Assembly: GCA_029781975.1 (NCBI GenBank)
Contig: JAKOVQ010000016.1
Location: 248,001 to 312,000, forward strand
Direction: 5' to 3'
Source of the DNA: Acidobacteriota bacterium
Lineage (GTDB): Bacteria; Acidobacteriota; Thermoanaerobaculia; UBA5066
DNA: 64,000 bases
Shown: positions 3,132-62,968 of the stretch, piece by piece
Position numbering within the stretch: position 1 is the first letter of the stretch
Layout: each line of letters starts with the position of its first letter
Program-made: the position numbers and the translations under genes
The notes under the pieces: generated by a model
Database searches by the model: none
What the model was told of the DNA's origin: nothing
What the model saw: the letters and a program-made list of their open reading frames with translations, nothing else

Positions 3132-6029
3132 GTGACGAGCGCTGCCGACCGACCCGACCCGACCCCGACCGTCGACACCCGGACCCAGCGGGCCTCCGGG
3201 CTTCGCGGCCTCACGTTCAAGCGCGTCTACTCCGACGGGGTGACCCCTCCCTTCGAGGCGGTGGAGTGGGAGCTGAGGACGGCCGCGATCACGAACGAGA
3301 AGGGGGAGGTCTTCTTCGAGCAGAAGGACGTCGAGGTGCCGAAGGCGTGGTCGATGACCGCCACGAACATCGTCGCGCAGAAGTACTTCCACGGGAAGGT
3401 CGGCACGCCCCAGCGCGAGCGCTCCGCCCGGCAGCTGATCGGGCGGGTGGTGGAGGCGATCACGGGCTGGGGGCACGCCCGGGGCTACTTCCGGACCGCC
3501 GCGGACCGGGACGTCTTCCACGACGAGCTCGCGGCGATCCTGGTCCGGCAGGTCGCCAGCTTCAACTCGCCCGTCTGGTTCAACGTCGGGATCGAGCCGA
3601 AGCCCCAGGCCTCCGCCTGCTTCATCAACGCGGTCGGCGACTCGATGGGCTCGATCCTCGACCTCGCCAAGACCGAGGGGATGCTCTTCAAGTTCGGCTC
3701 GGGGACCGGCTCGAACCTCTCGGGCCTGAGGTCCTCCAACGAGTCGCTCTCCTCGGGCGGCATCGCCTCCGGCCCCGTCTCCTTCATGAAGGGCTTCGAC
3801 AGCTTCGCGGGCGCGATCAAGTCGGGCGGGAAGACGCGGCGGGCGGCGAAGATGGTCATCCTGAACATCGACCACCCGGACGTCGAGGAGTTCATCGAGT
3901 GCAAGGCCAAGGAGGAGCGGAAGGCCTGGGACCTCATCGAGGCGGGCTGGGACGGCTCCTTCGGCGGCGAGGTCTACAGCAACGTCCTCTTCCAGAACGC
4001 CAACCACTCCGTCCGCGTCACCGACGAGTTCATGAAGGCCGTGGAGGCCGGCGCCGAGTGGACGACGCACGCCGTGACGACCGGCGAGCCGATGAAGCGC
4101 CACGACGCCCGGACGCTCCTCCGAAAGATGGCCGACGCGGCGTGGGTCTGCGGGGACCCCGGGATCCAGTACGACACGACGATCAACCGGTGGAACCCGT
4201 GCAAGGCGACCCACCGGATCAACGCGTCGAACCCCTGCTCGGAGTACATGTTCGTCGACGACTCGGCCTGCAACCTGGCGTCGCTGAACCTGATGAAGTT
4301 CGCCAAGGAGGACGGCGGCTTCGACGTGGAGCGCTTCCGCCACGCGGTGGACGTCGTCTTCACCGCGCAGGAGATCCTCGTCGACGAGGCGTCGTACCCG
4401 ACCCCGGCGATCGAGCGGAACTCCCACGACTTCCGGCCGATCGGGCTCGGCTACGCCAACCTCGGCGCGCTCCTGATGTACAACGGCCTCCCCTACGACG
4501 GCGACGAGGGGCGCGCCTACGCGGCGGCCGTCACGAGCCTCATGCACGGGCAGGCGTTCCTCACGTCGTCGCGCATCGCCTCGGAGATCGGCCCCTTCCG
4601 GATGTACGAGCCGAACCGCGAGGCGTTCCTCGACGTCATCGCGATGCACCGCGACGCGGCCCGCGCGGTCCCGCGCGTCGGCGTCCCCAAGGAGCTCCAC
4701 GACGCCCAGGCGGGGGTCTGGGACCTGACCCTGGAGTCGGGGCGCCAGCACGGGTACCGGAACGCGCAGGCCACCGTCCTCGCGCCCACCGGGACCATCG
4801 GCTTCATGATGGACTGCGACACGACGGGGGTGGAGCCCGACCTGGCGCTCGTGAAGTACAAGAAGCTGGTCGGCGGCGGGACGATCAAGATCGTCAACAA
4901 CACGGTCCCCCACGCGCTCCAGCGCCTCGGCTACTCGGCGGAGCAGACCGCCGCGATCGTCACCCACATCGACGAGAAGGGGACGATCGAGGGCGCCCCC
5001 GGCCTCGAGCCGCGCCACCTCGCGGTCTTCGACTGCGCGTTCAAGGCGCTCGGCGGGACCCGCTCCATCGACCCGATGGGGCACGTGAGGATGATGGCGG
5101 CCGTCCAGCCGTTCCTCTCCGGCGCCATCTCCAAGACGGTCAACATGCCCCCCGACGCGACCGTGGAGGAGATCGCGAACGTCTACGTGGAAGGGTGGAA
5201 GCTCGGCCTGAAGGCGATCGCGGTCTACCGCGACGGCTGCAAGCGGACGCAGCCGCTCAACACGGCCGCCTCGAAGTCCGACGACGGGGTGAAGGGGACG
5301 AAGGGGTCCGCGGGCGAGGCGCGCCCCGCGCCGGCGGCGGCCCCGGCCGTCCCGCACGTCGCGGCGCCGCGGCGCCGCAAGCTCCCGGACGAGCGGCGGG
5401 CGCTGACGCACAAGTTCTCGGTCGGCGGGCACGAGGGGTACATCACGGTCGGCCTCTACGAGGACGGGACGCCGGGCGAGATCTTCCTGACGATGGCGAA
5501 GGAGGGCTCGACGATCTCGGGCCTGATGGACGCCTTCGCCACGGCGATCTCGCTGACGCTCCAGTACGGCGTGCCGCTCGAGGCGCTCGTCGAGAAGTTC
5601 AGCCACATGCGATTCGAGCCCTCGGGCTACACGAAGAACCCCGAGATCCCGATCGCCAAGAGCCTCGTCGACTACATCTTCCGATACCTCGCCTCGCGCT
5701 TCCTGACGCCGGACCTGAAGGCGCGGGCGGGCGTCGTCTCCCGCGAGGAGCCCGGTGCCGAGGGAAGCAGCTCCGCCCGGGCCGCCGGCCCCGACCTCCT
5801 CGGCGTCGCCCCCGACCTCGCCCGGTCGATCACGAACGCCTTCGAGCAGGCCAGGCTCGTCGGCGCGCGCCCGATCGGCTTCCAGAAGCCGGGCGCCTCC
5901 GCCCTCCCGGCCCCGACGTTCCAGAACAGCGCCGACGCGCCGAGCTGTCACCAGTGCGGCCACCTGATGGTGAGGAACGGCGCCTGCTACAAGTGCACGA
6001 ACTGCGGGGAGACGTCGGGCTGCAGCTGA
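3132..6029 (+). CDS. nrdJ: Adenosylcobalamin-dependent (class II) ribonucleoside-diphosphate reductase
   Basis: The 965-residue enzyme reduces ribonucleotides to deoxyribonucleotides using a B12-generated thiyl radical. The catalytic barrel shows SPVWFNVG (about 146-153), SACFINAVGD, the loop FGSGTGSNLSGLR (188-200) and the radical-site signature NPCSE (367-371). A TSCPD domain follows near 765-870. The C-terminus is a zinc-ribbon-like cysteine cluster (CHQCG, CYKC, NCGETSGCS), where the redox-active C-terminal cysteines of the family lie. The GTG start is placed by AGGAGGT 7 nt upstream. No class Ia or III genes are nearby. The upstream region carries likely NrdR boxes, so regulation by dNTP level is probable. 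No B12-box typical of a cobalamin riboswitch is visible. Confidence 0.96.
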   Translation: MTSAADRPDPTPTVDTRTQRASGLRGLTFKRVYSDGVTPPFEAVEWELRTAAITNEKGEVFFEQKDVEVPKAWSMTATNIVAQKYFHGKVGTPQRERSARQLIGRVVEAITGWGHARGYFRTAADRDVFHDELAAILVRQVASFNSPVWFNVGIEPKPQASACFINAVGDSMGSILDLAKTEGMLFKFGSGTGSNLSGLRSSNESLSSGGIASGPVSFMKGFDSFAGAIKSGGKTRRAAKMVILNIDHPDVEEFIECKAKEERKAWDLIEAGWDGSFGGEVYSNVLFQNANHSVRVTDEFMKAVEAGAEWTTHAVTTGEPMKRHDARTLLRKMADAAWVCGDPGIQYDTTINRWNPCKATHRINASNPCSEYMFVDDSACNLASLNLMKFAKEDGGFDVERFRHAVDVVFTAQEILVDEASYPTPAIERNSHDFRPIGLGYANLGALLMYNGLPYDGDEGRAYAAAVTSLMHGQAFLTSSRIASEIGPFRMYEPNREAFLDVIAMHRDAARAVPRVGVPKELHDAQAGVWDLTLESGRQHGYRNAQATVLAPTGTIGFMMDCDTTGVEPDLALVKYKKLVGGGTIKIVNNTVPHALQRLGYSAEQTAAIVTHIDEKGTIEGAPGLEPRHLAVFDCAFKALGGTRSIDPMGHVRMMAAVQPFLSGAISKTVNMPPDATVEEIANVYVEGWKLGLKAIAVYRDGCKRTQPLNTAASKSDDGVKGTKGSAGEARPAPAAAPAVPHVAAPRRRKLPDERRALTHKFSVGGHEGYITVGLYEDGTPGEIFLTMAKEGSTISGLMDAFATAISLTLQYGVPLEALVEKFSHMRFEPSGYTKNPEIPIAKSLVDYIFRYLASRFLTPDLKARAGVVSREEPGAEGSSSARAAGPDLLGVAPDLARSITNAFEQARLVGARPIGFQKPGASALPAPTFQNSADAPSCHQCGHLMVRNGACYKCTNCGETSGCS

Positions 6030-6038
6030 GGCGCGCTC

Positions 6039-6066
6039 GCGGGGAGGGGCCCCCGCCCCTCCCCGC
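6039..6066. terminator. Bidirectional hairpin between nrdJ and the zinc-ribbon gene
   Basis: GCGGGGAGGGGC (6039-6050) pairs without mismatch with GCCCCTCCCCGC (6055-6066) around CCCC. It fills the 40 bp between two converging stop codons. Confidence 0.6.
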
Positions 6067-6069
6067 GGC

Positions 6070-6568: not shown

Positions 6569-6931
6569 GTGCGCTTCCTCGTCCACGTCCTCGTCACGGC
6601 GGCGTCGCTGGGGGCGGCGGCCGCGCTCGTCCCCGGGATCCGGTCCGACGGCGTCCTCTCGCTCGTCCTGGCGGCGCTCGTCTTCGGGGTCGTCAACGCC
6701 CTGATCAAGCCGGTCCTCAAGCTCCTCTCGTGCCCGCTGATCCTCCTGACGCTCGGCCTCTTCACCCTCGTCCTCAACGGCGTCCTGCTCCTCCTGGCGG
6801 CGCGGCTCGGCGGGCTCCTCGGGATCGGGTTCCACGTCGACGGCTTCTGGGCGGCGTTCCTCGGCGCCCTCGTCGTCTCGGTCGTCTCGACCCTTCTCTC
6901 CTGGCTCGTCGGCGACGACCGGCGGCGCTGA
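6569..6931 (+). CDS. Phage-holin-family IV / YvlD-like 4-TM membrane protein
   Basis: The 120-residue protein is almost wholly hydrophobic with four predicted membrane helices. It has the family pattern FGVVNALIKPVLKLLSCPLI near the middle (short stretch at residues 47-66), which marks the bacterial YvlD/phage holin superfamily IV. Despite the name these are chromosomal membrane proteins of poorly known role, often linked to envelope stress; no phage genes are nearby. The GTG start has no ribosome-binding site but a -10 hexamer sits just before it. The gene stands alone between a divergent zinc-ribbon gene and the aromatic leader. Confidence 0.8.
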   Translation: MRFLVHVLVTAASLGAAAALVPGIRSDGVLSLVLAALVFGVVNALIKPVLKLLSCPLILLTLGLFTLVLNGVLLLLAARLGGLLGIGFHVDGFWAAFLGALVVSVVSTLLSWLVGDDRRR

Positions 6932-6993: not shown

Positions 6994-7012
6994 TTGACAG
7001 GGCGGTTACCCT
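6994..7012 (+). promoter_or_regulatory. Promoter region of the aromatic attenuator transcript
   Basis: TACCCT (7007-7012) resembles the -10 before the tmRNA in this window and ends 11 nt before the leader ATG. An exact TTGACA lies at 6994-6999, too close to pair with that -10 and without a good -10 at 17 bp. Which element is used is unresolved. Confidence 0.35.
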
Positions 7013-7023
7013 AGGCGGAACCG

Positions 7024-7107
7024 ATGCGAGCCCCCTCCCTCACCTCCCTGTTTACGGGCATCGGCGGCTTCTACGCGGAGCCGCACGGGGAGGGGCCGCC
7101 GAGCTGA
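7024..7107 (+). CDS. Putative Phe/Tyr-containing leader peptide
   Basis: A 27-codon reading frame begins with ATG at 7024 and stops at TGA 7105-7107. It contains Phe10 (TTT, uncommon in this GC-rich DNA) and the adjacent pair Phe16-Tyr17 (TTC TAC, 7069-7074), products of the pathway controlled by the next gene. AGGCGG precedes it loosely. A ribosome stalled at Phe16-Tyr17 would leave segment 2 (7087-7095) free, while one that reaches the stop would cover it. This placement is what a transcription attenuator needs. The frame is too short for codon statistics, so the call rests on geometry and context. If transcription used the TTGACA at 6994, the start codon would lie at or before the mRNA start, which would weaken the call. 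Confidence 0.55.
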   Translation: MRAPSLTSLFTGIGGFYAEPHGEGPPS

Positions 7108-7177
7108 ACCAAGCAAGCGGTCCGGGCCGGAGACGAGCCCCCCTCCCCGAGATGGCGGAGGGGGGCTCTTCCCGTTT
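7032..7177 (+). promoter_or_regulatory. Four-segment transcription attenuator
   Basis: Segment 1 CCCCTCCC (7032-7039) can pair with segment 2 GGGGAGGGG (7087-7095). Segment 2 can instead pair with segment 3 CCCCTCCCC (7140-7148), forming an antiterminator. Segment 3 is the left arm of a perfect 12-bp terminator stem (7135-7146 with 7157-7168, 10-nt loop) followed by TTCCCGTTT. These mutually exclusive pairings match the trp/phe type of attenuation. The tail is not a pure T-run. Read from the sequence; folding energies were not computed. Confidence 0.6.
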
Positions 7178-7200: not shown

Positions 7201-9144
7201 ATGACGACCGAGACGACGAACGGCACGCTCCCGTCCGAGGCCCCCCGCCCGATCCTCCGCGCGGGCTACCAGGGCCAGCCCGGCTCCTTCGGGGCCCGCG
7301 CCGCGGCGCGCTGCGGGCGCCCGCTGCCGTACGCGACGTTCGGCGACCTGGTCGAGGCGCTCCGCCGGGGGGACGTCGACGCGGCCCTCCTCCCCGCGGT
7401 CGAGAGCGTGACCGGGCCCGTCCTGGAGCCGCTGGCCGCGCTCGCGGCCGCCCTGGCCGACCCGGGAGCGCCCGGGCTGCGCGTCACCGCGGAGCTCTCC
7501 GTCCCGATCCGCCTGGTCTTCGCCGTGCCGCACGGCCTTCCGGCGGCCGACGTCGAGGAGGTCCTCTCGCAGGCGCCGGTCCTCAGGCAGTGCCACCTCC
7601 TCCTCGACCGGCTCGGAGCGCGGCCGGTCGAGACGGCCGACACGGCCGCCGCGGCGGCCGAGGTGGCGCGGCTCGGCGGGGCCCGCGCGGCGGTCTGCTC
7701 CGAGGAGGCGGCGCTCGCGCACGGCCTCGTCCCGCTCGAGGAGGACGTCTCGGATGCCCGCCCGAACGCCACCCGGTTCTGGAGGGTGGAGCGGACGGAG
7801 CGGACGGAGGCGACGGACGGGGCGCCCCCCCCGGCCGGCGGCGGCTTCCCCCGGGTCCTCCACTACCGGGGCGAGCGGATCCCCGAGCTCCTCTCGGGGA
7901 CGGGGGCCGAGCTCCTCCGCGTCGCCCCCGGTGTCGGCTTCGCCGTCGTCTCCCCCAAGGCGCTCCAGGCGGTGGCGCGGGAGCTGAAGGCGGCTCCCGA
8001 GGAGACCGCGACGTGGCTCGGGCCGCGCCCGGAGACGGCGACCCCGCCGCGGCGCCCGGCGCTCCCGAAGGCCACCGCGGTCCGCGAGCCCAGCGTCGTG
8101 AGCGTGGGGCGCTTCGCGGTCGGCGGCGGGAAGAGGGCGCTGATCGCGGGCCCCTGCGCCGTGGAGTCGGAGGAGCAGGTGATGCGGCTCGCCCACGCCG
8201 TCGCCCGGGCGGGGGCGACGGCCCTGCGTGGCGGCGTCTTCAAGCCGAGGACCTCGCCGTACGCGTTCCAGGGGCACGGCCTCGTCGCGCTCCGCTGGAT
8301 GAAGGCGGCCGGCGACGCGGTCGGGCTCCCGATCGTCACCGAGGTGATGGCCCCGGCCCAGGTGGAGAAGGTGGCCGAGCTCGCGGACGTCCTCCAGATC
8401 GGGGCGCGCAACTGCCAGAACTACGACCTCCTCAGGGAGGCGGGGCGCGCGGGGCGGGCCGTCCTCCTCAAGAGGGGCTTCGGGACGACCGTCGAGGAGT
8501 GGCTCTCCTCGGCCGAGTACCTGATGGACGCGGGGTGCGCCGACGTCATGCTCTGCGAGCGGGGGATCCGGACGTTCGAGAACTCCACGCGCGGGACGCT
8601 CGACCTCTGCGGTCTCCTGGCGGCCCGCTCGCTGACGCACCTCCCGATCCTCGCCGACCCCTCGCACGCGGCGGGGCGCCGGGACCTCGTCGTCCCCCTC
8701 TCGCGGGCAGCCTGGGGAGCCGGCGCGGACGGCCTGATCGTCGAGGTCCACGACACCCCCGAGTCGGCCTCGTGCGACGGGCCGCAGGCGCTCCTCCCGG
8801 AGGACCTCGAGGCGCTCTGCGACGACCTCGGCCTCGTCCCCCGGACGGCCGACTCCGTCGAGCGGGTCCGAGGGGCCATCGACGTCACCGACCGCGAGAT
8901 CGGGCGCCTCGTGACGCGCCGCCTCGAGCTCTGCCGGATGGTGGCCGAGGCCAAGAGCGCGGCCGGGGTCCCGATCCGCGACGCGGCGCGGGAGGCGCTC
9001 GTGAAGGAGCGCTTCGCCAGGACCCCAGGCCTCGACGAGGCCGCGGCCGCCCGCCTGGCCGACTCGCTCATCGCCCTCGGGCTCGCCGCCGAGGGGTGGC
9101 GCGAGGAGGGGGAGGAGCCGGCCGCCGGCTGCCGCGCCTCGTGA
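7201..9144 (+). CDS. Prephenate dehydratase-like / DAHP synthase / chorismate mutase fusion
   Basis: The 647-residue protein joins three aromatic-pathway domains. Residues 17-197 resemble prephenate dehydratase: [10 protein letters not shown] at the start and the catalytic TRF at 191-193, although the usual PIENS...G loop is altered to PAVESVTGP and no ACT domain follows. Residues about 290-545 are a type I-beta DAHP synthase with GPCAVE (metal Cys319), [16 protein letters not shown] (His489), IVEVH (Glu515) and SCDGPQA (Asp526). Residues about 553-635 are an AroQ chorismate mutase ([15 protein letters not shown]). The DAHP synthase should be active; the first domain may be a catalyst or a phenylalanine sensor. 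ATG follows AAGGAGA. The attenuator upstream fits control by Phe/Tyr supply. Confidence 0.88.
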
Positions 9145-62554: not shown

Positions 62555-62583
62555 ACGGTAGGGACCGGACGGGGGGGCGTCAA
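62555..62583 (-). promoter_or_regulatory. Promoter of cutA
   Basis: On the minus strand TTGACG (62583-62578), 17 bp, TACCGT (62560-62555), ending 6 nt before the ATG. This is the clearest leaderless promoter with both hexamers. Confidence 0.65.
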
Positions 62584-62590
62584 GGCGTGG

Positions 62591-62596
62591 TACCCT
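62591..62596 (+). promoter_or_regulatory. -10 element of tmRNA
   Basis: TACCCT lies 11 nt before the mature tmRNA 5' end. Confidence 0.45.
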
Positions 62597-62607
62597 CGAT
62601 CCGACGT

Positions 62608-62968
62608 GGGGGCGCACCGGTTTCGACGGGGCCTTCCGCGATCGAGGAGCACGCCGAGCACGCCGTTCGCCTCGTAAAAACGACGGCAAAATAAAAGCTG
62701 CCAACGACAGCGAACTCGCTCTCGCGGCCTAAGACGCCGTGACGGGTTCCGGGGAGCTCGCCCGTCGCGCCCCGGGACTCGACGCAAAATTCGGGCTGGG
62801 GACGCCCTCGCCGCCTGAAGGGACGCCCCGAGATCGCCAGGCTCGCCTCCGTGTCTGGTCGCCCGGTCCCATGGGCGCGCGAGGTCAGAAAAAAAGCCCG
62901 GGCTGAGCGTGGAGAATCTCGACGTAGGAGCGCATCGGACGGGGGTTCGACTCCCCCCGCCTCCACCA
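62608..62968 (+). ncRNA. ssrA: tmRNA
   Basis: The 361-nt RNA has a tRNA-like end: 5' GGGGGCG pairs with CGCCTCC before ACCA (CCA encoded, 62966-62968), and GGTTTCGACGG follows at the 5' side with GGTTCGACTCC as T-arm. The tag frame reads GCC AAC GAC AGC GAA CTC GCT CTC GCG GCC TAA (62700-62732), giving ANDSELALAA after the tRNA-borne alanine; a preceding GCT at 62697 might add one more Ala. It frees stalled ribosomes and marks the product for proteolysis. One-piece form, with a pseudoknot-rich middle. Confidence 0.95.

What the first reader, a model, noticed from the sequence alone, without database searches (positions are those of the whole stretch)
7024..7177. Complete Phe/Tyr transcription attenuator before an aromatic-pathway fusion gene
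A 27-codon leader with Phe10 and adjacent Phe16-Tyr17 precedes four mutually exclusive RNA segments: 1 (7032-7039), 2 (7087-7095), 3 (7140-7148) and a 3:4 terminator of 12 perfect pairs (7135-7168). A ribosome stalled on Phe16-Tyr17 covers up to about 7084 and frees segment 2 to pair with 3; one at the stop codon (7105) covers segment 2 and lets the terminator form. The downstream gene makes aromatic precursors. Classical attenuation is well known in proteobacteria and actinobacteria but I know of none described for this kind of fusion gene.
Basis: partly seen in the sequence, partly recalled or inferred. Interest (0 to 1): 0.75.

Follow-up and report, generated by a model that had tools for sequence, protein, structure and literature searches.

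The report
Phe/Tyr leader-peptide attenuator in Acidobacteriota
Upstream of a three-domain gene for making phenylalanine and tyrosine precursors, a family of Acidobacteriota carries a short peptide gene and a set of competing RNA hairpins that most likely switch the gene on when Phe or Tyr runs short; this is the classical attenuation trick of E. coli, in a phylum where I found no earlier description of it.

Summary
Window 7024-7107 encodes MRAPSLTSLFTGIGGFYAEPHGEGPPS*, followed by a 12-bp perfect terminator-like stem (7135-7168), before a PDT-DAHPS-chorismate mutase fusion (7201-9144). Nine of 13 fusion-bearing genomes of one Acidobacteriota family (five genera) keep the leader, the antiterminator and the terminator at the same place; one genus (four genomes) lacks them and has the gene elsewhere. 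Covariation supports three pairings: a small hairpin with the last Tyr/Phe codons in or beside its loop, a two-part antiterminator, and the terminator. Phe/Tyr codons are 12% of leader codons against 3.8% in genes; TTT/TAT make up 57% of them against 2.6%. The last Phe/Tyr codon starts 12-17 nt before segment 2, and the leader stop lies 8-14 nt after it, as ribosome-mediated attenuation needs. The same genome has a second attenuator of this kind before ilvD. It is a new member of a known kind, in a phylum where the literature I could search describes none; no experiment was possible. An invariant promoter-like pair with a spacer about 10 bp too short (TTGACA-N7-TANNNT) stays unexplained.

The parts
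6994..6999 (+). TTGACA box (-35-like)
   Evidence: TTGAC present in all nine attenuator loci; the ordinary spacing in this genome is TTGAC-N17..20-TANCCT, here N8
7007..7012 (+). TACCCT box (-10-like), 11 nt before the leader ATG; suggests a leaderless or nearly leaderless leader mRNA
   Evidence: TANNNT at the same place in nine of nine (eight fit TANCNT, G009 has TATGGT)
7024..7107 (+). leader peptide ORF MRAPSLTSLFTGIGGFYAEPHGEGPPS*
   Evidence: orthologous 25-31 aa frames in nine genomes; length differences in the ORF are multiples of 3
7051..7053 (+). control codon Phe10 (TTT, rare in these genomes)
   Evidence: Phe or Tyr at codon 9-13 in nine of nine
7069..7074 (+). control codons Phe16-Tyr17 (TTC TAC)
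   Evidence: Tyr or Phe as last control codon in nine of nine, its first base 12-17 nt before segment 2
7064..7084 (+). hairpin P1 (arms 7064-7068 and 7080-7084) with the control codons in or beside the loop; possibly the RNA polymerase pause hairpin (inference)
   Evidence: three of five pairs with changes on both sides, 95.6% of cells paired
7087..7095 (+). segment 2: antiterminator 5' strand (7087-7094 pairs with 7141-7148)
   Evidence: one pair is GC in four and CG in four genomes; forms in simulated stalled folds, less cleanly in G001/G007
7124..7127 (+). second antiterminator strand GGGC (pairs with 7137-7140)
   Evidence: nine of nine paired; G-C to A-U in G001 and G-U in G011
7135..7146 (+). 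segment 3: terminator 5' arm, overlapping the antiterminator 3' strand (7137-7148)
   Evidence: terminator helix 99.1% of cells paired, three pairs with changes on both sides
7157..7168 (+). segment 4: terminator 3' arm, followed by TTCCCGTTT
7201..9144 (+). regulated gene: prephenate dehydratase - DAHP synthase - chorismate mutase type II fusion
   Evidence: Pfam PF00800, PF00793, PF01817; full-length relatives at 64-68% identity in the family

Best explanation
This is a ribosome-mediated (leader-peptide) transcription attenuator for the PDT-DAHPS-CM gene. A ribosome translates the 27-codon leader right behind RNA polymerase. When Phe-tRNA or Tyr-tRNA is short it halts at Phe10 or Phe16-Tyr17 and covers the RNA only up to the edge of segment 2 (a halt at 16-17 also opens hairpin P1). 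Segment 2 (GGGGAGGG) and a second strand (GGGC) then pair with the two halves of segment 3, the terminator cannot form and the gene is read. When Phe and Tyr are plentiful the ribosome runs to the stop codon and covers segment 2; segment 3 pairs with segment 4 and transcription ends at about 7170. Shown here: sequence, conservation, covariation, codon bias and spacing. Inferred: stalling, termination, direction of control and the start site.
For: Leader, antiterminator and terminator sit between the same type of upstream gene (Phage_holin_4_2 by Pfam in the window; similar reading frames in the relatives) and the fusion gene in nine genomes of five genera. Antiterminator plus P1: 94.8% of cells paired, 13 cells with changes on both sides (shuffles 4.9 +/- 1.5, 0 of 500 as high), slid partners 47-55% paired; terminator 99.1% paired, 7 such cells (0 of 500). 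F/Y codons 28 of 233 in leaders against 3.8% in genes; TTT/TAT 16 of 28 against 8 of 305. Last F/Y codon to segment 2 12-17 nt, segment 2 to stop 8-14 nt in all nine. The antiterminator appears in folds of the stalled state before segment 4 is made, and the terminator in folds of the ribosome-at-stop state (eight genomes; stalled state again for all nine). A covariance model finds only these nine places as strong matches in 120 genomes of the class. A second leader-peptide attenuator with branched-chain codons precedes ilvD in the same genome. The target gene makes Phe/Tyr precursors.
Against: No expression data. Only 2-4 control codons per leader. The window's U-tract is weak. No conserved 1:2 protector was found, so untranslated RNA may read through rather than terminate. 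In G001/G007 the 2:3 helix is short and bulged, and for G001 one of the two truncations tested folded differently. Leader sequences are related by descent, so p-values overstate independence, and I placed the alignment register for the pair counts by hand. In Streptomyces coelicolor a leader-like region before ilvB did not respond to codon changes (discussed in PMC1262725), so such anatomy alone is not proof.
Confidence: 0.88

Rival explanations
1. The structure is a terminator for the upstream gene or a constitutive attenuator, and the short frame is a chance ORF.
For: High G+C DNA gives many spurious ORFs; the upstream gene ends at 6931 and the scan shows no other terminator-like site between it and the fusion gene.
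Against: Leader frame, control codons, AT-ending codons, segment 2 and in-frame indels are conserved in nine genomes, and the antiterminator covaries. A plain terminator needs none of these.
Confidence: 0.05
2. A riboswitch or protein-binding attenuator that senses Phe, Tyr or another ligand directly, without leader translation.
For: P1 and the two-part antiterminator form a compact, covarying structure.
Against: Conserved unpaired content is mostly the leader's Phe/Tyr codons; no Rfam family matches; codon bias and spacing to the leader stop fit a ribosome, not a ligand pocket.
Confidence: 0.04
3. The leader works by peptide-sequence-specific ribosome arrest (TnaC-like) instead of by uncharged tRNA.
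For: The peptide has a recurring GG-x-Y-x-P motif.
Against: The Gly-Gly and Pro codons are the arms of P1, which explains their conservation at RNA level; the peptides are otherwise divergent.
Confidence: 0.03

Closest known systems
pheA attenuator of enterobacteria (pheL leader)
   Same: Phe-codon leader peptide, alternative antiterminator/terminator, target with chorismate mutase and prephenate dehydratase activities (general knowledge; pheA attenuation is named in PMC1183508)
   Different: Different phylum, no Rfam match, fewer control codons, Tyr codons included, DAHP synthase in the target, two-part antiterminator and no conserved 1:2 protector
trp attenuators of Actinobacteria (PMC1262725) and the leaderless trpL of Sinorhizobium meliloti (PMC7298713)
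   Same: Leader peptide with alternative stems; G+C-rich terminators in the Actinobacteria; in S. meliloti the RNA starts at the leader ATG, as is predicted approximately here
   Different: Trp instead of Phe/Tyr; different sequence; control codons here lie in a hairpin of their own
ilvD leader of the same family (G000:C15, L204; found here)
   Same: Same logic: control codons, G-rich segment 2 in the last leader codons, terminator with C-rich 5' arm
   Different: Long Val/Leu/Ile run, TTGACA box at ordinary distance, different stems

Membership tests
ribosome-mediated transcription attenuator (class) | short leader ORF with codons for the end product of the regulated pathway | tested here: met
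   F/Y 12% against 3.8%; nine of nine leaders
ribosome-mediated transcription attenuator (class) | mutually exclusive antiterminator and intrinsic terminator sharing a strand | tested here: met
   covariation and simulated folds
ribosome-mediated transcription attenuator (class) | control codons and stop codon placed so that a stalled ribosome frees, and a ribosome at the stop covers, the antiterminator strand | tested here: met
   12-17 nt and 8-14 nt in nine of nine
ribosome-mediated transcription attenuator (class) | 1:2 (protector) pairing in the absence of translation | tested here: inconclusive
   pairing to segment 2 not above shuffles overall; antiterminator forms in several untranslated folds
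ribosome-mediated transcription attenuator (class) | starvation-dependent read-through | not testable with these tools
   needs experiment
any Rfam 15 family (a leader family included) | covariance-model score at or above gathering | tested here: not met
   no match at gathering over 7024-7177; best sub-threshold match 21.7 bits against a cut-off of 70

The most novel reading that the evidence does not exclude
Acidobacteriota of this family control amino-acid genes (aro fusion, ilvD) by leader-peptide attenuation, and at the aro locus the leader mRNA is leaderless and made from an unconventional promoter whose TTGACA and TANNNT boxes are held about one helical turn closer than normal in all nine species, pointing to a dedicated activator or sigma factor.
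Probability: 0.25. Interest if true: 0.7.

Novelty: new member of a known kind. Interest (0 to 1): 0.52.

Why it matters
Leader-peptide attenuation was described in 2010 as shown only in Proteobacteria and Actinobacteria, with one Firmicutes his addition, and almost no predicted attenuator in Acidobacteria had an assigned function (PMC2965389). Two conserved cases in one Acidobacteriota family would extend it to that phylum and give ready targets for testing. The case also links an entry-point enzyme (DAHP synthase) to Phe/Tyr sensing through a gene fusion, and uses rare TTT/TAT codons as control codons.

Tried and rejected
Looked for the attenuator before single aroF genes and before the second, permuted fusion (CM-PDT-DAHPS, G000:C2): none seen. 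Looked at more distant fusions in other phyla: no leader seen by eye. Weak covariance-model matches that were inspected (G032, G074, G014, G003, G010) are gene-end terminators or chance; G012:C594 is an ilvD attenuator. trpE lies directly behind a hisIE-like frame without a leader of its own. The first scan of genome contigs with the single protein found no confirmed relative.

Full report
What is there. The window (sampled contig about 74% G+C) comes from a genome whose family members are Acidobacteriota MAGs: G011, G010, G006, G008, G002, G004 and G005 have contigs of the same lengths as the named records JAKPXO010000208, JARXKK010000032, JAEUQS010000717, PLZI01000131, CALAQS010000326, JAKLER010000158 and RHKY01000021. 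The finding's coordinates are right. The downstream gene is a prephenate dehydratase - DAHP synthase - chorismate mutase fusion; no ACT domain was detected by Pfam between PDT and DAHP synthase. The upstream gene is a Phage_holin_4_2 membrane protein, and similar reading frames precede the attenuator in the relatives.

Conservation. Of 14 genomes held for the family, 12 gave full-length fusions and a thirteenth, G009, a contig-end fragment; G003 has none. Nine of these 13 (G000, G001, G004, G005, G006, G007, G009, G011, G013; five genera) have the leader, segment 2, segment 3 and terminator directly upstream. The four genomes of genus g3 have the gene behind a different gene and no attenuator. 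A covariance model built from the nine finds them at 98-142 bits, while everything else listed in 120 genomes of the class scores 39 bits or less; the weak matches inspected were gene-end terminators or chance, apart from one ilvD attenuator.

Structure. Three pairings are supported by compensatory changes on a hand alignment whose register follows the codons. P1 (7064-7068 / 7080-7084) holds the last Tyr/Phe codons in or beside its loop; pair 5 is C-G in five and G-C in three genomes, pair 4 changes to A-U in G006. Antiterminator helix 2:3 (7087-7094 / 7141-7148) has a G-C to C-G exchange at one pair; helix P2b (7124-7127 / 7137-7140) has G-C to A-U in G001. The terminator has A-U to C-G and A-U to G-C changes. 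Segment 3 is thus split between two upstream strands in the antiterminator and used as one strand in the terminator. I chose the register by eye with the structure in mind, so these counts lean towards it; slid controls and shuffles are far lower. A MAFFT alignment without hand placement shows the same conserved blocks, but its RNAalifold consensus recovered the terminator and two short upstream helices, not the antiterminator, as expected when the terminator competes for the same strand.

Ribosome logic. The first base of the last control codon lies 12-17 nt before segment 2, about where a ribosome with that codon in the A site ends (general knowledge), and the leader stop lies 8-14 nt after segment 2, so a ribosome there covers it. 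Leaders are enriched in Phe/Tyr codons, and strikingly in the AT-ending TTT and TAT (16 of 28 against 8 of 305 in genes). Other leader codons are only slightly more AT-ending (GC3 0.91 against 0.95), so this is specific to the Phe/Tyr codons, though part of it may serve to keep the P1 loop unpaired. Rare codons are also known from the leu leader, but the theory of selective charging (PMC1183508) would not by itself explain TTT/TAT if, as usual, one tRNA reads both codons of each pair (general knowledge).

What is not supported. Without it, RNA that is not translated may form the antiterminator.

Promoter. TTGAC and a TANNNT box are present in all nine loci as TTGAC-N8-TANNNT. In this genome TTGAC-N17..20-TANCCT is the common arrangement (15 of 18 hits, among them one in a longer form; the N8 form occurs once, here), and other N8 matches in the family are about as frequent as the reversed control pattern. 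The box lies 10-13 nt before the leader start and no clear Shine-Dalgarno is visible in most of the nine, so the leader is probably leaderless or nearly so; S. meliloti trpL is a known leaderless case (PMC7298713). Why the spacer is one helical turn short I cannot explain.

A second case. One weak model hit led to a leader rich in Val/Leu/Ile before ilvD. The same is found in G000 (L204), G001, G002, G005, G006, G007, G012 and G013, with a terminator; an antiterminator-like pairing of the last leader codons with the terminator's 5' arm was folded for four of them. This makes leader-peptide attenuation a repeated device in this family.

Literature. Naville and Gautheret 2010 (PMC2965389) state that leader peptides were then known only from Proteobacteria and Actinobacteria, add a Firmicutes case, and note that attenuators in Acidobacteria had almost no assigned function. 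Searches of the open library found no later report for Acidobacteriota; subscription papers, among them a 2010 comparative survey by Lopatovskaya and co-workers (cited in PMC4833913), could not be read, so priority is not certain.

Verdict. Observation confirmed, interpretation supported with two corrections; new member of a known kind.

Noticed in passing
L204 (G000:C15, upstream of 98067-99686 on the minus strand); L200-L203, L205, L206, L190: Branched-chain leader peptide (e.g. MSRENAAAARISTPVPQAVAGSVVLSLLVLVLLVLVIGPPGVG*) plus terminator before ilvD in eight genomes of the family: a second classical attenuator.
   Followed up: partly
window 6994-7012 and the same place in eight relatives: TTGACA-N7-TANNNT: promoter-like boxes about 10 bp closer than the genome's usual spacing, with invariant spacing; unexplained.
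   Followed up: partly
L172 935-2956 (G000:C2): Second triple fusion with permuted order, CM-PDT-DAHPS (Pfam), without a leader; the genome thus carries two differently ordered versions.
   Followed up: partly
L227-L230, L233-L235, L237: trpE directly follows a hisIE-like reading frame: a joined his-trp operon in the family (read by eye, no domain search).
   Followed up: no
window 6037-6068: Strong terminator-like hairpin just after the ribonucleotide-reductase-like gene ending at 6029.
   Followed up: no
window 62573-62968: tmRNA gene, tag AANDSELALAA.
   Followed up: no
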